Source of the DNA: Flavobacterium aeripolare
GTDB lineage: Bacteria; Bacteroidota; Bacteroidia; Flavobacteriales; Flavobacteriaceae
Length of the DNA: 64,000 nucleotides
Direction: 5' to 3'
Assembly (NCBI RefSeq): GCF_013294025.1
Contig: NZ_JABSNL010000002.1
Span: 1-64,000 of the forward strand
This document shows, in pieces, positions 20,681 through 29,899 of this stretch (positions within the stretch are counted from its first letter, which is position 1; the number at the start of each line of letters is the position of its first letter). The notes below the pieces were generated by a model. That model was not told the origin of the DNA and did no database searches. It saw nothing but the letters and a program-made list of their open reading frames with translations. The position numbers and the translations under genes were made by a program.

Positions 20681-20683
20681 AAC

Positions 20684-20724
20684 AAAAAACGGAGACTGAT
20701 TTTAAATCGATCTCCGTTTTTTTT
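20684..20724 (+). terminator. sprT-like terminator; left copy of the 37-bp direct repeat
   Basis: Stem CGGAGA/TCTCCG with inner GATTT/AAATC pairs, an A-run before and T-run after, so active both ways. Bases 20684-20720 recur without a mismatch at 29838-29874, in the same orientation. Confidence 0.9.
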
Positions 20725-20894
20725 ATCGGTTTCTCGTTTTCGGTTATATCCTTTACTTTTAACCTCCAATTCCGGAATGTAATTCAATAAAATTAGCCAT
20801 AGATGCAACTCAAGCGACAATTATGACATATTTTGGATATACAATTCTACAGAGATTTTATGTGTTATTCTCCTCGTATTTAATGGGGATAGTT

Positions 20895-21146
20895 TTATGA
20901 TCCGGCACTAAGAAAGTTGAGCGAGCTGACAATCCATAAAATAGGTTTCCAGAAAACAACATAGGTAATAATGGTCAGAATTGAGAATAGTGCCCAAAAC
21001 CCAAAATTGGCCTCTCTCACAAATGTTGGGAAAAATTCATTTAGTGCCACGTAAATCCCAAATGGAACAGCTAGAAAAGCAAAAACAACCCAAGCGGCTA
21101 ACTTGATAAAAAAAGCGATGCAATTCAATAAAAATTGTGCTAACAT
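20895..21146 (-). CDS. small two-span membrane protein, unknown function
   Basis: An 83-residue protein I do not recognise. It has a first hydrophobic span at about residues 5-33 and a second at about 48-77, with few charged residues between. It is a plausible gene given its coherent hydrophobic pattern and ATG start. It lies in the left part of the island, on the strand opposite to the dynamin operon. No partner is evident. Confidence 0.55.
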   Translation of the reverse strand: MLAQFLLNCIAFFIKLAAWVVFAFLAVPFGIYVALNEFFPTFVREANFGFWALFSILTIITYVVFWKPILWIVSSLNFLSAGS

Positions 21147-21338
21147 AATTAAAATTTGTGGTGACTTTTGTCACATTAATAGAATGGTGAAAAGAAGTAA
21201 TAAACATTTTGTAATTTCGACTTTATAAATTAGATGATATACAAATAAAACTCTGTCATTGAGTCGTTTGATTTAGTATGTTTTCTTGTAATTTTATTAC
21301 AGTAATTTTTCTACTCACTAACAATGTTTAGGAGTAGA

Positions 21339-21563
21339 TTATATAAAATAATCTCTTTTATTCTTTGTAGGTTCGTCGTCATCCATAGCTACAATTAACC
21401 CGCCAATAAGGAGTGTAAAGCCCGCGCCAATGATGCCGCCAATATTCCCTTTTTTTCCGGCGAATGATGCAATTGCCATTCCTGCCGCCGCACCTGCAGT
21501 TAGTAATTCACTAGCATTGCCTAAGTTTAATTCTGATTTAGATCTCTTTTCTGGATTTTTCAT
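21339..21563 (-). CDS. small glycine-rich membrane protein, unknown function
   Basis: A 74-residue protein starting MKNPEKRSKSELNLG, with an Ala/Gly-rich helix (about 16-34), a short basic turn (GKKG), a second Gly-rich hydrophobic helix (about 39-58) and the acidic tail DDDEPTKNKRDYFI. The glycine spacing suggests closely packed helices in the membrane. The frame could begin further upstream at 21623, but that adds a poor, non-conserved-looking extension, so I take the ATG at 21561-21563. The function is unknown. Confidence 0.55.
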   Translation of the reverse strand: MKNPEKRSKSELNLGNASELLTAGAAAGMAIASFAGKKGNIGGIIGAGFTLLIGGLIVAMDDDEPTKNKRDYFI

Positions 21564-21932
21564 AATTTTTGATTTAAAATTGATATTGCAATGATATTGC
21601 ATCCTACTGCCATTTTGTGTCATTATGAAAAAAAAGTATAAAAAATTCTTTTTACATTGGTCTATTTACTTTTTCCATGAGATGACAAATGAATTTATAT
21701 TTAGTCAAAGAGTTCCTAGTATAAAGCCGATACAATATGAAAATAGTACAACGTAATTGTACTAAATTGACCCTCGCCTGAAATTGCAAATAGGCGAACC
21801 AAAATGTATTTGGTATTATCTTGAAATGAAACGTAATAGAATATCTCTTACTCTAACTAGCATAAAAAAAAAGTAATGTGCTAACATCGTTTGGCGGTAT
21901 AATGATATATGTTTGTCAAAATTAAAAACGGA

Positions 21933-22844
21933 ATGGCAGCAACGCAAAATTTAAACCTCACTCAATTACGTAGAATTAGTTTGTTATTGGCCTATTTAAA
22001 GGACAATCCTTATAGTACTTTGGACGATATAATTGAAGCATTTAGAGAAAAAGACAAACAATTGACCGAGCGTACTTTTTACAGATTAAATCAAACCTTA
22101 AAAAAGGAGTATGATATTCTTATTGTATTTGACTATTTTAAAAATGGTTATTTTTTTGACGAAGAGAATAGTAGAAACTTAGAGTCTTTTCTAAGCTTGT
22201 TAGAACTAGTAACAACTGCCGAATTATTCTCCTCCAATCTTCAAGAGAAAAGCAAAACCCTAGATTATGTTGAGTTTGAAAATACAGCTTCGGTTGCGAG
22301 TATTCCCAATTTTAAAATCATTCTAAATGCAATTCAAATGCAGTTGCCAATCACTTTCTTGCACAATAGTTTTTATCATCTCAAACAAGAACAGTACAAC
22401 TTGAAGCCTTACTTCCTTAAGCAATATCAAAACCGTTGGTATGTGATTGGCGAAACCGAAAAAGGCTACCGTACCTTCGGAATAGATCGTTTGTCAGTTA
22501 TTAGTATGGGGTCGCAAAAATTCAAAGCCAAATCTGAAGAGGCAAAAGAGTTGTTTAGCAACGTGATCGGACTCAATTACACAGACCATAAACTGGAAAG
22601 GGTGCAATTAAATTTTCATATTTCTCAAAAACCATATCTTGAGTCGCTTCCACTGCACCGTACACAAAAGGAAATAGCTGCTATTGAGGATGACAGTTTT
22701 ACGGTAGAGTTGCTAATTCATCCTAATTTCGAATTCAACCAACAAGTTTTGAAGTACGGTAGTCTTGTTAAAGTTTTAGAACCGAAATGGTTAGTAGAAG
22801 AAATGAAAAAAGAACTAAAAAAAGCAGTGGCGAATTACAAATAA
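21933..22844 (+). CDS. WYL-domain transcriptional regulator
   Basis: A protein of about 303 residues with an N-terminal winged-helix-like region (LNLTQLRRISLLLAYLKDNPYSTLDDI...LTERTFYRLNQTL) and a central WYL domain (LKPYFLKQYQNRWYVIGETEKGYRTFGIDRL), followed by a C-terminal extension of the kind seen in BrxR/CapW-like regulators. WYL proteins sense ligands or nucleic acid and often sit beside anti-phage genes. An ATG at 21909 is possible, but it overlaps a -7-like TATGTTTG (21908-21915), so I favour 21933. It is upstream of and co-directional with the dynamin operon; whether it regulates that operon is inference. Confidence 0.8.
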   Translation: MAATQNLNLTQLRRISLLLAYLKDNPYSTLDDIIEAFREKDKQLTERTFYRLNQTLKKEYDILIVFDYFKNGYFFDEENSRNLESFLSLLELVTTAELFSSNLQEKSKTLDYVEFENTASVASIPNFKIILNAIQMQLPITFLHNSFYHLKQEQYNLKPYFLKQYQNRWYVIGETEKGYRTFGIDRLSVISMGSQKFKAKSEEAKELFSNVIGLNYTDHKLERVQLNFHISQKPYLESLPLHRTQKEIAAIEDDSFTVELLIHPNFEFNQQVLKYGSLVKVLEPKWLVEEMKKELKKAVANYK

Positions 22845-23157
22845 TTACTGCAAATAATTATATTTGAGAAAGTTGTACTGACAGAAAACTACTAACAATA
22901 ATAGCTGAATATCTATTGATATTATTTGTGGTTAATAACAATATAGTTATAGTTTAAAGATGCCAATGGATGTTGAACTTATATGCTGTTTGAATTTAAT
23001 TGGGGTAAGTGGTGATCAGTTTTTGTGAATTAATGTAATTATTTTAAAAAAAAACGGACCACAATGAGGGAAACCGTAATATAATGAGATGAAAAAATGA
23101 TATTCTTGCCTTATTTTCAAAAAAAGAACTAGTGAAATACATTTTACACCATAAAAT
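22845..23157. other. 313-base gap without a recognised gene
   Basis: AT-rich DNA between the WYL regulator and the HNH-like remnant. I see no frame or hairpin that I can support. Confidence 0.5.
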
Positions 23158-23616
23158 ATGCGAATCATGGACAAAGAAAGGCCATATTGCCGCACCGAAA
23201 TTTCTATTGCCTTTACTAAACGTAAAGCAGTAATGCAAGCAGAAGCCTTGATACGTAGTGGTGACGGTTGGGCTATGTACCAAGATTGCTATACCGGGAA
23301 AATACTCAGAGGCGGAGAACGTTATGACTACGAACACCTACGATCCTCTGAAGAAATCTTCATGAAATACAGACACATACTAACCAACGAGCAAATTGCA
23401 GAAGTAGTCAATTTCCCTGAAAATGTTGGAGTGACTTAAAGGACTATTAACCAGTCAAAAGGAAAAAGACGAATGGAAGATTGGTTGAATTCTTCATTAA
23501 ACAAGCCATAGTTGGGAGTCAATTTACAATATATTTTATCGAGCTTGAAGAAAGCGGATGAAGGGATTTTGAGAAATTATAATAATATATCAATCAAAAC
23601 AAAAATATTAAAATGA
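23158..23616 (+). pseudogene. HNH-nuclease-like gene broken by two in-frame stops
   Basis: A 93-codon frame (23158-23439) reads PYCRTEISIAFTKRKA, then a DxxH-type block (YDYEHLRSSEEIF), and stops at TAA 23437-23439. The same frame goes on to read RTINQSKGKRRMEDWLNSS, stops at TAG 23509-23511, then continues LKKADEGILRNYNN up to the dynamin start. DxxH followed by NxxKG is the layout of HNH endonucleases. I therefore read this as one gene with nonsense mutations (TTA to TAA and CAG to TAG would suffice). The 5' end may also be missing. A translated shorter product cannot be excluded. Confidence 0.6.
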
Positions 23617-25361
23617 ATTTAGAATTAAAAAGAATTATCGACACTTATGAATTTGATGCTTTAGCAAGTGAATTAGAAAGTACACAAAATGTTGAGAACA
23701 TCTACATCGGTGTATTGGGTGAATTTAGCTCTGGTAAATCATCATTGTTGAATAGTATTTTAGGGAAGAAAATACTTCCTGCAATGGACAAAGCAACTAC
23801 AAAATCAATTACTTATATAAAATCGGATACAGCTCAAGATTCAGAAGTAGAGTACTTTGAAATCTCTAAAAATGATAGCGAATTAAAAATTTCATTAATA
23901 GAATTTCAAGATATTGCTAAAGGTATTCGAGCAGGTGAATCTCTCGTTTCTGTTAAAAGTAATGATTTTTTAAATAAAGGATATATTTTTATAGATACAC
24001 CTGGAGTGAGTTCATTGGATCAAACAGATATTGACATTACTTATGGAATGTTACCAAAATTAGATGGAATTCTAGTCTGTATTGATTGTAATACAGGTAC
24101 TTTGAACGCAAGCCTGGAATTATTTTTGCAGAGACCTGAAATTGAGTTGATAAAAGATAAAATTATTTTTATACTTACAAAATCAGATCAAAAAACCACC
24201 GAAGGAATAAATAAAATTATTGAAGGTTTTAAAATAGATATCAATAAATACTTAAAAGTAGACGACATTGATTCTAGAATAATTTCATTTTCAGCGAATG
24301 ATATTTTTGAAAAAGAAAATAATAGTAGTAATGAGAAACTACTTGATTTATTTGAAGTTTCTATAAATTCAAGAAGAAATCACATAATCTCTCAGCGTCT
24401 AAAAGTTCAAGAGGAAACTTTGAAAAATAAAATTATAGATGCACTCAAGGATTTAAAAACAAAATTAAGTTTTGACAATTCTCAATTTAAAAAAGAAAGA
24501 ATAAAATTAGAAGAAGATATTGAAAGTTTGCAATTGCAAAAAAGCAATATCAAGAAAAAATTATCAAAATTTGAGGATTTATTATCTGATGAAGTTAAAT
24601 CAATTGGGAAAAGTTTTAGCTCGAGCATTAAATTAGAATTTGCAAGCGTGTCTCCGAATATGGAAAATTTAAGTGATTTATATAATCAATATACAGACAA
24701 TGTAAATGAATTAATTAGAGCAAATGTCCAGAGATTTTTTCAAGAATATAACATTGTTGACCCAGCAAATATAAATACTGATTTTGGAATTTTAACCTCA
24801 TCCATTAATTTAATTATTAAGACTAAAAATGCTTTTGCAGGCTTAACAACGGCAGTTGCAATTGCACTGGCAACTGGAGGTGCAGGTGCGGCTGCGAATG
24901 CTGCTGAAGCTACTGTTGCTACAAGTGCCGAATTAGGCGGTCAAGCTGCTTCAAAAGTAGTTGCAAGCCAAGCTGCTAAAGCGGTCGCAAAAGAAGCTGG
25001 TAAAACAATGATTAAAAAAGCTTTAGGTCAAAGATTAAAATCAATGGCTCTACAAGGTATTGCTGCATTAAATGATGGTGTAAAAGAAATAAATCCAATC
25101 GAACATATTGGAGCTTTTGTCGCTAATTTTGCTATCCAATCTAAAACAGAAATTGAAGTTTCGCAAATTGGTAGAAAAATTTTAAATAATACTATGGCTT
25201 CTATTGAAGATCAGATAAATTTATTATTTAAAGAGATTGAAGAAAAGGTGAAAATTCACGACAACAACTTAAGTGTCGCTTTTGAAAAATTAAAAAAAGG
25301 AAAAAATGAAGTAGAAAACACCAAACGTAATATTCAAGATGAAATTATTAAATTAAGTTAA
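23613..25361 (+). CDS. dynamin-like GTPase with putative membrane-insertion segment (first of three)
   Basis: A 582-residue large GTPase of the bacterial dynamin-like kind. G motifs: G1 GEFSSGKSS at 36-44, G2 Thr 62-63 (KATTKS), G3 DTPG at 128-131, G4 TKSD at 189-192. Long helical, coiled-coil-like stretches follow (about 260-335). Residues 408-465 form an Ala/Gly-rich hydrophobic region ending in a basic segment, resembling the membrane paddle of bacterial dynamins; a further helix runs to the C-terminus. It begins a run of four same-strand genes, 43 bases before the next. Family assignment is firm from motifs; the cellular role is unknown. Confidence 0.85.
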   Translation: MNLELKRIIDTYEFDALASELESTQNVENIYIGVLGEFSSGKSSLLNSILGKKILPAMDKATTKSITYIKSDTAQDSEVEYFEISKNDSELKISLIEFQDIAKGIRAGESLVSVKSNDFLNKGYIFIDTPGVSSLDQTDIDITYGMLPKLDGILVCIDCNTGTLNASLELFLQRPEIELIKDKIIFILTKSDQKTTEGINKIIEGFKIDINKYLKVDDIDSRIISFSANDIFEKENNSSNEKLLDLFEVSINSRRNHIISQRLKVQEETLKNKIIDALKDLKTKLSFDNSQFKKERIKLEEDIESLQLQKSNIKKKLSKFEDLLSDEVKSIGKSFSSSIKLEFASVSPNMENLSDLYNQYTDNVNELIRANVQRFFQEYNIVDPANINTDFGILTSSINLIIKTKNAFAGLTTAVAIALATGGAGAAANAAEATVATSAELGGQAASKVVASQAAKAVAKEAGKTMIKKALGQRLKSMALQGIAALNDGVKEINPIEHIGAFVANFAIQSKTEIEVSQIGRKILNNTMASIEDQINLLFKEIEEKVKIHDNNLSVAFEKLKKGKNEVENTKRNIQDEIIKLS

Positions 25362-25404
25362 TCATGAATCTAGGAAAGATAATTGAAAAATAACCCTCAG
25401 AACT

Positions 25405-27042
25405 ATGGAGAATAGTAAAAAAAATCCCAATCAACTTTTTAGCAATTTATTAAATGACATCATTCATTATAACGATATTTATTCTGATTTATGGGAGCAT
25501 AAAGACGACATTTGGGAAAAAAAATTATTAAAAAAATTAGAAGTTGATGCTAAAATTTTATTAGAGCAATCTATTTTAGTTTCTGGAAACCAGCAACCAG
25601 TTCGAGTTGCAATCGTTGGGAATTTTAGTGCAGGTAAATCGTCTTTTATTAATTCTTTAATACAAGAAGAAATATGCCCTGTAAGTGATAAACCAACAAC
25701 TTCTTCAGTTACAACTCTTTCGTTTTCTCATAAGAAAGCATTCTATATACTGGATATAAACGGTAATAAAAAGAAAATTTCGTCTGAAAATTACAGAGAG
25801 ATGATTCAGCACGGAACAGCAGAAACAGTTAAAGAATCCGCCCATTTTTTTATTGAAGGTCCTTGGGAATTTGTAAGAGACATTTCATTATTAGATACTC
25901 CAGGATTTGAAAATCCTAATGATGTTTTTACACCAGATAGAAACAATCTTAAAGGCGGAGACGATGAAGAGACAGAAAGAGTAATTAAAAACGAAGCGGA
26001 TGTTTTGTTTTGGCTAATGGATATTAATACTGGTAGTATTACTGGAGATCAAAAAGAAAGAATTGAAAAGTTAAAAAAAGAAACAACGAATGTTGAGATA
26101 TATATAATCTTAAATAAAGCTGACCAAAAAGTATATGCTACGGCAAGACAAAAAATTTTGGATGACATTAAAAAAGATTTAGGTCACGTAATTAAAGATG
26201 TGATTTTATACTCTTCAAAAACAAGTAACCAAAATGATTCAACTGATTTTAATACAATTATCCAAAATATTAAAAGTAATATTCACAATCAAAATCAGTT
26301 GCGAAATGAATCTTGGGAGTTGAAATTTTCAAGCTCTATTGGAGGAAGAGGTAAGTTAAGATTTCACTACAACGATAATGGAATAGAGTCCATGTTTTCA
26401 TATACTGAAGATTCTATTGATGAAGGTATTATTCCAAATAGACAGGAAATACTAAAAAAATTAAAAGAAATAGGATCTCGTAATAAAGAGATTACAGTTA
26501 AAAATTTACAAATAGGATTATCTAATTATGAATTTGATAAAAAAGGTTTATTAGGTTATAAATTAGAAATACAGGAACACTTAAAGTATTTAAATGAAAC
26601 AAAAATTAAAAAAAGCGATCGCTACAACAATTTCAATAAACACTTAAATTATTTTAATGACGCTTGCATCTCTGAAGTTGTAAATTCCCTTGTATATTAC
26701 AATACAAATGACTTAATCAAGCAAAATATAGATGCAATTTCAAATTCATTTATGAAACTCATTAAGGTTTTATTTAATAAATTCATTTTAAATATCGAAA
26801 AAGAATTAGAGTATAGTTATGCTGAATCTGAAATTGAAATTTTTGACTTGAAGTTTTTATTTAAAAGTTTGATATTTTCAAATATTGATTATGATCAACC
26901 GGTTCAATATGCTACAGATGAAACTCTAGGTTTCTTTAGAACCTATCTAGATAATATTTTTTTTGAAAGAGAAGTAACAATTCTAGGAAACAATATTGAT
27001 GAATGCAACCAAATTATTAAAAAATTAGAAAAAATATGTTAA
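25405..27042 (+). CDS. dynamin-like GTPase (second of three)
   Basis: A 545-residue GTPase. G1 GNFSAGKSS at 72-80, G2 Thr in KPTTSS near 98-99, G3 DTPG at 164-167 and G4 NKAD at 237-240. An N-terminal helical region of about 60 residues precedes the GTPase domain. The C-terminal half is helical but has no hydrophobic paddle that I can see, unlike the first protein, so it may work as a partner. It is clearly not a recent duplicate of its neighbours. The last 7 bases overlap the third GTPase gene, which implies translational coupling. Confidence 0.85.
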   Translation: MENSKKNPNQLFSNLLNDIIHYNDIYSDLWEHKDDIWEKKLLKKLEVDAKILLEQSILVSGNQQPVRVAIVGNFSAGKSSFINSLIQEEICPVSDKPTTSSVTTLSFSHKKAFYILDINGNKKKISSENYREMIQHGTAETVKESAHFFIEGPWEFVRDISLLDTPGFENPNDVFTPDRNNLKGGDDEETERVIKNEADVLFWLMDINTGSITGDQKERIEKLKKETTNVEIYIILNKADQKVYATARQKILDDIKKDLGHVIKDVILYSSKTSNQNDSTDFNTIIQNIKSNIHNQNQLRNESWELKFSSSIGGRGKLRFHYNDNGIESMFSYTEDSIDEGIIPNRQEILKKLKEIGSRNKEITVKNLQIGLSNYEFDKKGLLGYKLEIQEHLKYLNETKIKKSDRYNNFNKHLNYFNDACISEVVNSLVYYNTNDLIKQNIDAISNSFMKLIKVLFNKFILNIEKELEYSYAESEIEIFDLKFLFKSLIFSNIDYDQPVQYATDETLGFFRTYLDNIFFEREVTILGNNIDECNQIIKKLEKIC

Positions 27043-29027
27043 AACTATATACTCAAAAAAAAGAAACTCTTTTAGCTATTTACAATATGCTATTGGCAAA
27101 TAACTCAGAGTTTACTAATGCCGATTTAAAAACAGAACTTCTTGAAAAGAAAAAATCATTAGTAAATGATAAATTTATTCTTGCAGTTGCAGGGCAGATG
27201 AAAGCAGGAAAAAGCACTTTGTTAAATGCAATGATTTTTGGTGATGATATTTTACCAGCTGATGACACTGAGCTTACCGCAAAAATCACTTTCATAACTT
27301 ATGATGACAAGCCATCGTTTGAAGCTACACTATATACAGTTGATGAATTTAATGAATTAAGAAATTCATTAAAAGGAACTACTGATGAAAACGGCTTTAA
27401 TGTACTTCTTAATAATTCATTAGAAACATTACAAAACAAAGGTTATTCAACTTATGATGAGTTATTGAGTAAGAAGATTGTTAAAGGCACTGATTTTAAG
27501 GAATTAATACATTTTGTGGGTAAAAATGGTACTTTTACTCCCTTCGTAAACACCCTAACATTAAAAACTAGTTCTAAGTGGGTTAGAAATATTATTGTTG
27601 TAGATACTCCGGGAATGAATTCTCCAAATAAATTAAGAGATAACGTAGTTAAAAATTGGATTATAAAAGCTGATGCAGTAGTATATTGTAGTTACGTAGG
27701 ACGAGCAATGGATGCAACAGACCTTAGATTCATCAATGATTATATGCTTCATATTTCACCTAAACACAGATTAGTTGCCTTAACTAAATCTGATTTAATT
27801 AATGGTGAAGACAAATTGAGGAGTACAATAGACGATATGATTGATTCGGAATGGAATCGAGAGAAAAAATTAATTCCAAGTAAGGATTCTATTTTTCCTG
27901 TTTGCCAAATGGCTGTTTTATTGGATAAAATGAACAAATCTAAATTGCCTTTTTCTAAAAGAATGGAGGAAGAATATGATACTTTTGATAAAAAAAATAT
28001 TTTTGATCATGCTAATATTCAATTTTCAAAACTAGAGGAAGCAGTCGAAAATAAAATGATTTCTAATAAAGATGAAAATGTCATCGAGGCAAATCAAAAT
28101 TATTTATCAACTCTTCTTGATAGTAAATCATTGAATATTAAAGAAGAAATAGATATTACAGAGAAAAGTTTAGACCTTTTAATATCGGATCAAAAAGGAC
28201 TTACTGAAAAAGAAAAAATCATTCAAAATGATATTAAACATATAAGTGAAAATCTTGATGTACTAAGTAGTAAAATTACAAATTTATATAACAAAGAGGT
28301 TAGTACTTTGCAAATTTTTAATGGATTTATAACGGTAAAAGCAAATATCCAAAGAAAATTAGAAGGGATGAATTTTAATGAATTAAATATTCAAGCTTCT
28401 ATCATAGTCAATAATTATATGACTAAGTATCTTGATGAATTAAAAGAACAGTCAGATAAATTTTCAATAGATTTTTCAAAAGGCTTACAAAAAACATTTG
28501 ATCAATTCGATTTTCAATTTGATTATATAAATACTGATTTATTAAAAGAAAAAATTCAAATTAAATGTACAAGCCTAATCAATTTACAAATTGAAAATCT
28601 AAAATATAAATTATATGATGCAGCTACTAAATTAAAACAATTGTATAGTGACAATGTTGGTTGGTGGTCTCGTAACTTTACTTGGACAGACAAGCATAAA
28701 GGAGTTTTAGCGCTTGAAGCTTTTATTATGAATGAAATAGAGCCTATAATACAAGAAGTAAATAAACAAGAAAGTATTTTAAAAATAAATTTATCTTCAG
28801 ACGTTTCTGAAATAATAAGTAAGATTGAAGAAAACAATCGAACTTTGTTATCGAATAAGTTATCTGAGATTGCACAATTAAAAAATAAATCAACTATTGA
28901 ACTTGAAAATCAAAAAAAAATAGAAAAAGAAAAGCTACTGCATCTAAAAGAAAATCAATCAAAACTTGATACATTAAAAGAAGAAATTAATAATAAAATT
29001 AACGCTGAAGAGTTATGGGAAGCATAG
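27036..29027 (+). CDS. dynamin-like GTPase (third of three)
   Basis: A 663-residue GTPase with G1 GQMKAGKST at 53-61, G2 Thr near 78-81 (DDTELT), G3 DTPG at 190-193 and G4 TKSD at 250-253. After the GTPase domain come long helical segments (about 350-420, 440-540) and a strongly charged coiled coil at the C-terminus (about 590-660). No membrane span is visible. It overlaps the second GTPase by 7 bases and the small anchored protein by 13 bases. The layout of tandem dynamin-like genes recalls the LeoABC/Eleos type, but I cannot claim orthology. Confidence 0.85.
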   Translation: MLKLYTQKKETLLAIYNMLLANNSEFTNADLKTELLEKKKSLVNDKFILAVAGQMKAGKSTLLNAMIFGDDILPADDTELTAKITFITYDDKPSFEATLYTVDEFNELRNSLKGTTDENGFNVLLNNSLETLQNKGYSTYDELLSKKIVKGTDFKELIHFVGKNGTFTPFVNTLTLKTSSKWVRNIIVVDTPGMNSPNKLRDNVVKNWIIKADAVVYCSYVGRAMDATDLRFINDYMLHISPKHRLVALTKSDLINGEDKLRSTIDDMIDSEWNREKKLIPSKDSIFPVCQMAVLLDKMNKSKLPFSKRMEEEYDTFDKKNIFDHANIQFSKLEEAVENKMISNKDENVIEANQNYLSTLLDSKSLNIKEEIDITEKSLDLLISDQKGLTEKEKIIQNDIKHISENLDVLSSKITNLYNKEVSTLQIFNGFITVKANIQRKLEGMNFNELNIQASIIVNNYMTKYLDELKEQSDKFSIDFSKGLQKTFDQFDFQFDYINTDLLKEKIQIKCTSLINLQIENLKYKLYDAATKLKQLYSDNVGWWSRNFTWTDKHKGVLALEAFIMNEIEPIIQEVNKQESILKINLSSDVSEIISKIEENNRTLLSNKLSEIAQLKNKSTIELENQKKIEKEKLLHLKENQSKLDTLKEEINNKINAEELWEA

Positions 29028-29515
29028 GTTTAATAATTATTTTAGTCATTGCATTCATTACTTTTTGGATTTATAAAACTAAAAAAGGAAAAAGCGATCA
29101 CTCACTCGAGAAAAATAACCAATCAAACAACAATTTAAATAATGACAAAAAGGAGATTAAAATTGAATTAGATAAAATAAGATCAAAGCATTTGAAAAAC
29201 TTAATTAATTATTATGTGACATTGTTTTCACAAACGGAATTAGATAATCAAGTGGATAGAGATCGTATTGCTGAAACTTATCCAATAACTATAAGTAGAG
29301 AACCATTTAAATTTACTTTTTTATTTACTAAATATGATTCAGCTTTAGTTAATGAATGTATTTTAGAAATAATCGAAATGTCGAATAATTTGGAAATAGA
29401 AAAATCTACAAGCGAGCCGTTTCTACAATTTGAAAATTTTGTAAAAAATAAAGCAAAGTTGAAAGCGCAAAAAAAATTTAATGATTTTCGTGGCACTTTG
29501 CCTAAAACTTTATAA
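29015..29515 (+). CDS. small single-span membrane protein of the dynamin operon
   Basis: A 166-residue protein not recognised as a known family. Residues 4-20 form one membrane span (IGLIIILVIAFITFWIY) followed by a basic KTKKGK stretch, indicating a cytoplasmic body. An Asn/Ser/Lys-rich linker (about 28-48) leads to a folded-looking domain (50-166). The 13-base overlap with the third GTPase gene argues for co-translation and a shared function, perhaps anchoring the GTPases to the membrane. That role is inference. Confidence 0.7.
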   Translation: MGSIGLIIILVIAFITFWIYKTKKGKSDHSLEKNNQSNNNLNNDKKEIKIELDKIRSKHLKNLINYYVTLFSQTELDNQVDRDRIAETYPITISREPFKFTFLFTKYDSALVNECILEIIEMSNNLEIEKSTSEPFLQFENFVKNKAKLKAQKKFNDFRGTLPKTL

Positions 29516-29615
29516 TTATTAAAAATAGTTTTGTGTTTGTAGGAAATTCAAGTTGTTTTTTACTAAAAACACATAAATTACACTTAGTATTATTACGATA
29601 CAAACATCTTCCATA

Positions 29616-29882
29616 ATGAAAAACAAGCTAGACTCCATATCGCTTCTAATCGCTTTCTCAGGTTTAGTGCTTTTTGAGCTACTAGTTCGTATGGATATTT
29701 TAAGCCATCCAGCTTGGAAAATCGTGAATGCAGGTTTTGAAGCGGCAAATATTGGTGGCTTTGCCGATTGGTTTGCGGTCAGTGCTTTGTTTCGGGAGAT
29801 TCCTATTCCGATTGTGCGGAAGCATACCAATAGTATAAAAAAACGGAGACTGATTTTAAATCGATCTCCGTTTTCTTTTTAG
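29616..29882 (+). pseudogene. DUF445-family membrane protein, truncated after about 75 residues
   Basis: The first 70 or so residues match the N-terminus of DUF445 proteins, which are normally around 400 residues: an N-terminal hydrophobic span (ISLLIAFSGLVLFELLV) then NAGFEAANIGGFADWFAVSALFREIPIPIVRKHT. At 29838 the frame enters the 37-bp terminator repeat and ends in translated terminator sequence (RRLILNRSPFSF). The cut therefore coincides with the island's right boundary. A shortened product is possible but unlikely to be functional. Confidence 0.8.
29838..29874 (-). terminator. mlaF terminator; right copy of the 37-bp direct repeat
   Basis: Same 37 bases as at 20684-20720. On the minus strand it ends mlaF, whose stop lies 26 bases away; the seven-base A-run on the plus strand gives the T-run needed. 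Confidence 0.88.
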
Positions 29883-29899
29883 AAATTATATTTTTAAGA

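What the first reader, a model, noticed from the sequence alone, without database searches (positions are those of the whole stretch)
23613..29515. Operon of three different dynamin-like GTPases plus a small membrane-anchored protein
Seen: four same-strand genes with a 43-base gap and 7- and 13-base overlaps; three carry complete but different GTPase motifs (G1 GEFSSGKS, GNFSAGKS, GQMKAGKS; G3 DTPG in all; G4 TKSD, NKAD, TKSD). Only the first has an Ala/Gly-rich hydrophobic segment like a membrane paddle; the last gene encodes a single-span protein. Known: bacterial dynamin-like proteins often work as unequal partners, and tandem dynamin genes (LeoABC, the Eleos defence type) have been linked to vesicle release or phage defence. 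Inference: a hetero-oligomeric membrane-remodelling machine with one membrane-inserting subunit, two partners and a membrane tether, possibly anti-phage. The fourth protein matches no family that I know.
Basis: partly seen in the sequence, partly recalled or inferred. Interest (0 to 1): 0.85.

Follow-up and report, generated by a model that had tools for sequence, protein, structure and literature searches.

The report
Three-dynamin membrane-remodelling gene cassette
Three different bacterial dynamin GTPases sit in one acquired operon, and matching trios recur together in several bacterial phyla, which suggests a membrane-remodelling machine of unknown (possibly anti-phage) purpose; the small fourth protein looks like a local membrane anchor.

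Summary
D1, D2 and D3 are genuine dynamin-like GTPases (Pfam Dynamin_N E 2e-21, 4e-21, 8e-19); S4 is a single-span protein with no homologue found. The trio is not a chance cluster. A genome scan on D3 kept its best 80 loci; 53 of the 78 with a D3-class ORF also carry D1 and D2 (40 of 49 with full flanks), all on one strand, 48 of 53 in the window's order. D2 and D3, window copies included, are supported clades (99/94, 98/86); the window D1 is a long branch whose membership is not rejected (AU p 0.39). The families' distances correlate at 0.88-0.90 over 58 loci. The paddle lies almost only in D1. S4 is not a conserved subunit: 41 of 53 trios have another small protein with a hydrophobic segment in the operon. 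The cassette lies in a 9.2-kb block missing from the 6 same-genus relatives examined. Closest known: LeoABC/Eleos and the Campylobacter Cj-DLP1/2 pair, both two-dynamin sets. Anti-phage function is plausible but unproven: nearby defence genes are weakly enriched (p 0.04, or 0.07 on a stricter count).

The parts
23613..25361 (+). D1: dynamin-like GTPase with hydrophobic Ala/Gly-rich paddle (about residues 383-471); proposed membrane-inserting subunit
   Evidence: Dynamin_N 2.3e-21; D1-class profile hits PDB 5owv_C (Cj-DLP2) 6.5e-25, BDLP1 3.3e-22, IniA 1.8e-18; AF2 model mean pLDDT 72, residues 383-471 under 50; IniA Z 20.0, rmsd 7.0, 463 aligned; BDLP Z 18.5, rmsd 9.4, 480 aligned
25405..27042 (+). 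D2: second dynamin-like GTPase, no paddle
   Evidence: Dynamin_N 4.2e-21; in the supported D2 clade 99/94; D2-class profile hits 5owv_C 3.4e-18
27036..29027 (+). D3: third dynamin-like GTPase, G1 of the type G[QRS][VMI]K.GKS, long spacer between G1 and G3, no paddle
   Evidence: Dynamin_N 8.4e-19; in the supported D3 clade 98/86; D3-class profile hits 5owv_A (Cj-DLP1) 2.9e-42 over positions 8-622 of 691
29015..29515 (+). S4: small protein, one N-terminal transmembrane helix (residues 4-27) and a soluble part of no known family; proposed membrane anchor
   Evidence: KD19 2.60; AF2 without an alignment, mean pLDDT 47, confident only in the helix; below Pfam and NCBIfam cut-offs; no homologue
21909..22844 (+). 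WYL/WCX-domain regulator upstream, inside the same inserted block; possible regulator of the operon
   Evidence: WYL 4.3e-8, WCX 8.4e-11
20681..29899 (.). Block between a SprT-like gene and an ABC-transporter ATPase gene (second name read from its sequence, no call) that is missing from same-genus relatives: inserted accessory region
   Evidence: of 6 relatives examined, the two flanking genes lie 76-128 bases apart in 4 and have one unrelated gene between them in 2; GC of D1-S4 25-29% against 34-35% of the window left and right
23158..23600 (+). Decayed HNH-nuclease-like gene (in-frame stops) between regulator and D1
   Evidence: translation with stops; a similar intact 148-aa ORF lies 72 bases after D3 in L084 (compared by eye); the name HNH is recalled, no family matched
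29616..29882 (+). DUF445 fragment (profile positions 2-38 of 368) at the right edge of the block
   Evidence: PF04286 2.2e-9

Best explanation
This is a member of a widespread accessory cassette of three co-inherited dynamin-like GTPases that I found undescribed in my paper searches. Shown: three distinct families (D1 with a paddle; D2 and D3 mostly without) recur side by side on one strand in several phyla and have diverged together; the window copy lies in an inserted, low-GC block. Inferred: the three proteins assemble in the cytosol into a hetero-oligomer on the inner membrane. D3 (a Cj-DLP1 relative) and D2 are non-inserting partners that tether and activate D1, whose paddle inserts into the lipid during the GTP cycle; S4, like the small proteins of other trios, marks or recruits the site. 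The most likely use, less certain than the anatomy, is protection of the cell envelope when it is attacked from inside or pierced (phage lysis or entry, conjugation, envelope stress), as reported for DynA and suggested by the Eleos type.
For: Trio in 53 of 78 D3 loci, 40 of 49 with full flanks, one strand in 53 of 53, order D1-D2-D3 in 48 of 53. In a 93-row tree D2 (99/94) and D3 (98/86) are single groups with the window members inside; D1 with the window member is not rejected, p-AU 0.39. Distance correlations 0.88-0.90 over 58 loci, 0 of 2000 permutations as high; 0.62-0.87 within each subtype, 0 of 1000. Paddle almost confined to D1. D1, D2, D3 profiles reach Cj-DLP2, Cj-DLP2, Cj-DLP1 (which PDB chain is which I inferred from chain lengths), parts of a solved 2:2 complex that tethers liposomes (PMC6104087, abstract and passages). 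Accessory and mobile: block missing from 6 of 6 relatives examined; D3 in 1 of 299 same-genus genomes and 1 of 395 of the class, each time the window's own; in E. coli 5 of 5426 genomes, all on plasmids. DynA protects B. subtilis from phage by delaying lysis (PMC8844932, abstract).
Against: No interaction, GTPase or membrane assay; no complex could be modelled, and D2 and D3 were not modelled. 9 of 49 D3 loci with full flanks lack D1, D2 or both on the same strand. The window D1 is a long branch, only 6% of bootstrap trees put all D1 in one group, and its paddle score (1.47) is below the D1 median (2.02). S4 has no relatives, so its part is a guess; 12 of 53 trios show no small hydrophobic-segment gene by my rule. 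Rarity is not absence: the contig scan found trios in other Flavobacteriaceae (L064 Lutibacter, L084 Gelidibacter, L117 Flavobacterium), which the sampled genome searches did not show. Defence neighbours are weakly enriched (about 10 of 148 against 2 of 126, p 0.042; without PDC-S01 7 against 1, p 0.073).
Confidence: 0.6

Rival explanations
1. It is an Eleos/LeoABC-type anti-phage system, i.e. a divergent member of that known type with an extra dynamin.
For: PADLOC gives LeoA or LeoBC hits to all three (1.7e-7, 1.7e-9, 5.4e-7), the D3 hit running over residues 27-655, and a stronger one to the D3 of L083 (LeoBC 1.6e-20, 72 bits). LeoABC is likewise an operon of tandem dynamins (PMC4159319, passages). 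A WYL regulator lies upstream.
Against: Scores are weak (20-35 bits in the window) against 102 bits for L047 and 76 for L046, and these two fall outside the D1/D2/D3 classes. In E. coli LeoABC is two dynamins, one of them split in two; here three complete chains.
Confidence: 0.2
2. It serves plasmids or conjugative elements (DNA transfer, entry exclusion or envelope repair at the conjugation site) rather than phage defence.
For: Trios on plasmids of Photobacterium, Calditerrivibrio and E. coli; a Moraxella plasmid has D3 and D2 class genes and an unclassed 1089-aa P-loop ORF cut by the record edge. In Photobacterium the cassette sits between a traU-family gene and traN. In L114, L123 and L130 a 1027-1071-aa gene follows D3; the one scanned, L114, is a HerA/DNA-translocating ATPase relative. 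All 5 E. coli copies are on plasmids.
Against: The window copy is on a 468-kb contig, and I recognised no transfer gene among the ORFs of the block (its small ORFs were not all scanned); flanks of other trios include glutamine synthetase and NADH dehydrogenase. Plasmids also carry defence cargo.
Confidence: 0.2
3. It makes or sheds membrane vesicles (as suggested for LeoABC) or repairs the membrane under antibiotic stress, with no immune role.
For: leoA and leoB deletions lower vesicle cargo to about half in E. coli H10407 (PMC4159319, passages); D1 resembles IniA, reported to mediate membrane fission (PMC6715688, listing).
Against: Patchy and mobile distribution fits accessory conflict genes better than a housekeeping envelope role.
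Confidence: 0.15
4. Three unrelated GTPase genes brought together by chance in one island.
For: The three share only 19-22% identity in the GTPase domain.
Against: Recurring trios, same order, correlated divergence.
Confidence: 0.02

Closest known systems
LeoABC of enterotoxigenic E. coli / Eleos ('dynamins') defence type
   Same: Operon of bacterial dynamin-like GTPases, paddle-like region in LeoA, island location; PADLOC LeoA/LeoBC profiles touch all three proteins
   Different: Two dynamins, one of them split into LeoC and LeoB in E. coli; here three complete ones of three separate classes; scores weak; no experimental data here
Campylobacter Cj-DLP1/Cj-DLP2 pair (PDB 5owv)
   Same: Best solved relatives by sequence of D3 (Cj-DLP1, 2.9e-42) and of D1 and D2 (Cj-DLP2, 6.5e-25, 3.4e-18); unequal partners from one operon
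   Different: Two subunits, not three; the Cj-DLP1 assembly domain is called specific to Campylobacter, and the D3 alignment starts only at residue 128 of the chain
IniA and BDLP1
   Same: D1 model aligns over most of its length (IniA Z 20.0, rmsd 7.0, 463 residues; BDLP Z 18.5, rmsd 9.4, 480 residues); mitofusins score as high over 225-330 residues
   Different: Different gene company; sequence identity about 14%
DynA of Bacillus subtilis
   Same: Two dynamin units in one machine; phage protection by delaying lysis (PMC8844932, abstract)
   Different: One fused chain of two dynamins; the NCBIfam DynA model matches D1-D3 only at 37-43 bits against a cut-off of 1600

Membership tests
Dynamin superfamily | Dynamin_N GTPase domain with G1, G3, G4 | tested here: met
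   all three above cut-off; motifs
Dynamin superfamily | helical neck and stalk after the GTPase | tested here: met
   D1 only: model helices 255-285, 289-345, 351-378, 495-561, match to IniA and BDLP; D2 and D3 not modelled, their class profiles run beyond the GTPase domain of Cj-DLP2/Cj-DLP1
Dynamin superfamily | GTP hydrolysis and membrane remodelling | not testable with these tools
   no assay
Three-dynamin cassette (defined here) | one member each of D1, D2, D3 on one strand | tested here: met
   D2 and D3 placement supported, D1 placement not rejected rather than shown
LeoABC/Eleos | LeoA and LeoBC profile matches | tested here: inconclusive
   weak, 20-35 bits; nearly full length only for D3 (27-655); PADLOC cut-offs not shown
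LeoABC/Eleos | two dynamins, in E. coli one split into LeoC (N-terminal GTPase part) and LeoB | tested here: not met
   three complete chains each with G1, G3 and G4 (paper passages)
LeoABC/Eleos | protects against phage | not testable with these tools
   no assay
Cj-DLP1/2 pair | assembly domain of Cj-DLP1 | tested here: inconclusive
   D3-class alignment begins at chain residue 128 and window D3 has only 52 residues before G1; that the assembly domain is N-terminal is recalled

The most novel reading that the evidence does not exclude
A class of bacterial immune or envelope-protection machine built from three obligatory, co-evolving dynamins (one membrane-inserting, two non-inserting) plus an exchangeable small membrane adaptor that sets where the machine acts; S4 would be a new adaptor family.
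Probability: 0.35. Interest if true: 0.85.

Novelty: new variant of a known kind. Interest (0 to 1): 0.62.

Why it matters
The bacterial dynamins studied in the papers I opened work singly or as pairs. A three-part set that keeps its order in 48 of 53 trio loci and diverges together across phyla makes a ternary dynamin machine directly testable, gives a natural division of labour to dissect (paddle or no paddle), and offers a laboratory-friendly form on E. coli plasmids. If it protects against phage it would extend the Eleos/DynA theme to a larger family.

Tried and rejected
S4 against the coiled-coil anchors: hhalign matches only the membrane helix (26 columns, probability 40%), so homology is not claimed. 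S4 against the membrane protein after D3 in L057 (looked alike by eye): score 27 against shuffle mean 27.8, 587 of 1000 shuffles as good; dropped. S4 in viral contigs and plasmids: none; in 20 genomes of D3 loci 8 with hits at E <= 1, best 0.0055; in 397 family genomes the window itself and two marginal hits at 8.6e-4 and 9.6e-4. D2 and D3 in viral contigs: none. D2 in 395 phylum genomes: the window and two others. S4 structure without alignment: nothing beyond the helix. Reading the window as a plain Eleos system: weak scores, other composition. My first count of small hydrophobic-segment genes (28+9 of 53) missed four coiled-coil copies hidden by my ORF picker; one search adds them (32+9 of 53; the L082 copy is in two pieces). 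The class counts are lower bounds: ORFs under 400 aa or without a BLAST hit were not classed, e.g. a 474-aa GTPase-like ORF in L116 and a 346-aa one in L127; L123 has a D2 on the other strand and counts as neither. Defence-neighbour test: only weak. 148 of 243 eligible flanking proteins were kept at random; the control was 126 proteins from 21 stretches (one gave none) of 13 of the 20 genomes, one of which (that of L057) is not a scored trio; the figure of about 10 is my reading of family rows (a protein may count twice; 25 of 36 families shown). Papers: nine searches listed nothing that I could see to describe a D1-D2-D3 cassette; only open-licence PMC papers are held, and I opened six of them in part. 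A Helicobacter pylori island with three dynamin-like proteins is mentioned in PMC8935386 (passages), and 'Dynamins' as cargo of a Pseudomonas defence hotspot in PMC12629846 (passages); I did not test whether either is the same kind.

Full report
Observation. The four genes, strands, gap, overlaps and motifs are exactly as described. All three GTPases pass the Pfam Dynamin_N cut-off and are the three strong Dynamin_N matches of this 3.75-Mb genome; two more are weak. The hydrophobic Ala/Gly-rich segment is highest in D1, and S4 starts with a clear transmembrane helix.

Setting. The GC content of D1-S4 is 25-29% against 34-35% for the rest of the window. Nine same-genus relatives had the right-hand flanking gene; six were examined. 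In them the SprT-like gene left of the block and the ABC-transporter ATPase gene right of it are neighbours: 76-128 bases apart in 4 of 6, one unrelated gene between them in 2 of 6. So about 9.2 kb (20681-29899), with a WYL regulator, a decayed HNH-like gene, the four genes and a DUF445 fragment, is most simply an insertion. D3 was found in 1 of 299 genomes of the genus and, with a family profile, in 1 of 395 of the class, in both cases the window's own. This is a sample: the contig scan did find trios in other Flavobacteriaceae (L064, L084, L117).

Relatives. Plasmid searches with D2 and D3 hit mostly the same plasmids, and those opened carry further dynamins. Dynamin ORFs there were classed on a FastTree tree of the GTPase domain. 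Of 80 loci, 78 have a D3-class ORF. Of 49 with at least 4.5 kb upstream and 3.5 kb downstream of D3, 40 have D1 and D2 on the same strand, 4 D1 only, 2 D2 only, 3 neither; of 29 with less flank 13 have both, 8 one, 8 none. All 53 trios are on one strand, 48 in the order D1-D2-D3. The 57 trio loci of the distance test (window apart) lie in Bacteroidota 36, Bacillota 7, Pseudomonadota 5 and one each of Melainabacteria, Lentisphaerota and Thermodesulfobacteriota, six not assigned, one of them the Calditerrivibrio plasmid, Deferribacterota.

One unit. In a 93-row IQ-TREE tree, D2 and D3 with their window members are single groups (99/94, 98/86; 98% of bootstraps each). D1 needs two changes, and the window D1 is a long branch; without it the D1 rows form a group (98/61), and holding it in is not rejected (p-AU 0.39). 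Pairwise distances of D1-D2, D1-D3 and D2-D3 correlate at 0.88, 0.90 and 0.88 over 58 loci, above all 2000 permutations, and at 0.62-0.87 within the two subtypes. Shared organismal descent contributes to this; I had no marker gene to subtract it.

Division of labour. In ORFs of at least 500 aa, a hydrophobic segment of KD19 >= 1.4 after residue 250 occurs in 56 of 62 D1, 3 of 62 D2 and 11 of 80 D3. D1, D2 and D3 profiles best match Cj-DLP2, Cj-DLP2 and Cj-DLP1 among solved sequences (chains assigned by length), the parts of a crystallised 2:2 complex that tethers liposomes (PMC6104087, abstract and passages). The D1 model (48 sequences, pLDDT 72) is a dynamin with long stalk helices and a poorly predicted paddle region; IniA aligns with Z 20.0, rmsd 7.0, 463 residues and BDLP with Z 18.5, rmsd 9.4, 480 residues, while mitofusin fragments rank first (Z 21.7 at most). 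D2 and D3 were not modelled.

Fourth gene. No trio locus has an S4 homologue by BLAST at E <= 0.05. Instead 32 of 53 trios carry a protein of about 120-150 aa with an N-terminal hydrophobic helix and a coiled coil, most of them between D1 and D2 (28, four more, one of these in two pieces). Its helix scores vary (KD19 1.27-2.19 in 27 members), so membrane anchoring is likely, not shown. 9 of 53 have another small ORF with a hydrophobic segment in the operon, among them a 216-229-aa protein directly after D3 in six Bacteroidota loci; 12 of 53 have none by this rule, which also admits chance neighbours. S4 aligns with the coiled-coil family only in the membrane helix. I therefore read S4 as a local, exchangeable membrane anchor; this is inference.

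Function. Anatomy, motifs and relatives support a membrane-remodelling assembly. For its use the evidence is indirect: mobile and patchy distribution, a WYL regulator upstream, defence-gene neighbours about 10 of 148 flanking proteins against 2 of 126 control proteins at PADLOC E <= 1e-30 (Fisher p 0.042; 7 against 1, p 0.073, without PDC-S01), and the precedents of DynA (PMC8844932, abstract) and of Eleos, described as a dynamin-like defence system (PMC11811056, passages). A conjugation-related role is not excluded: several trios are on plasmids, one between a traU-family gene and traN, and in three loci a large gene follows D3, of which the one scanned (L114) is a HerA-like ATPase.

Verdict. 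A real, conserved three-dynamin cassette, new as a set as far as my nine paper searches show (listed under Tried and rejected), built from known parts.

Noticed in passing
L062, L065, L073, L080, L081, L083, L085, L087, L091, L092, L095, L097, L106 upstream of D1: A DUF6140-like small ORF (73 aa in L083) lies 2-143 bases before D1 in 13 of 53 trio loci (own profile; Pfam PF19637 1.1e-33 for L083): possibly a further part or regulator of the cassette.
   Followed up: partly
L114:3389-6499, L123, L130: A 1027-1071-aa gene directly after D3 in three loci named as Clostridiaceae, Paenibacillus and Lachnospiraceae; L114's matches a serine-rich protein family and HerA/CedD DNA-translocating ATPases.
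   Followed up: partly
L010:7046-13819: In Photobacterium plasmid pPGC22 the trio sits inside a transfer cluster between a traU-family gene and traN.
   Followed up: no
L065:11076-11480, L083:11108-11512, L073, L077, L097: A conserved 131-135-aa protein of unknown family after D3 in five Bacteroidota loci (L083 without a Pfam family).
   Followed up: no
D3 proteins of L010, L011, L012, L013, L044: The G4 motif is altered (GQLD, SQVD, TQRD, SKMD, SQYD) in these D3 proteins while the window D3 keeps TKSD; nucleotide specificity may differ.
   Followed up: no
23158-23600: Decayed HNH-like gene beside the cassette; a similar intact ORF lies just after D3 in L084 (Gelidibacter) (compared by eye).
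   Followed up: partly
L044:9273-12373: Accessory genes inside a trio: a TerB plus beta-helix protein, and a protein with a weak SIR2-like match (E 0.042).
   Followed up: no
L013:8920-11409, L135, L136: An 829-921-aa gene follows the trio in an E. coli plasmid, Citrobacter and Ligilactobacillus; those of L013 and L136 carry a CFI-box C-terminal domain.
   Followed up: no
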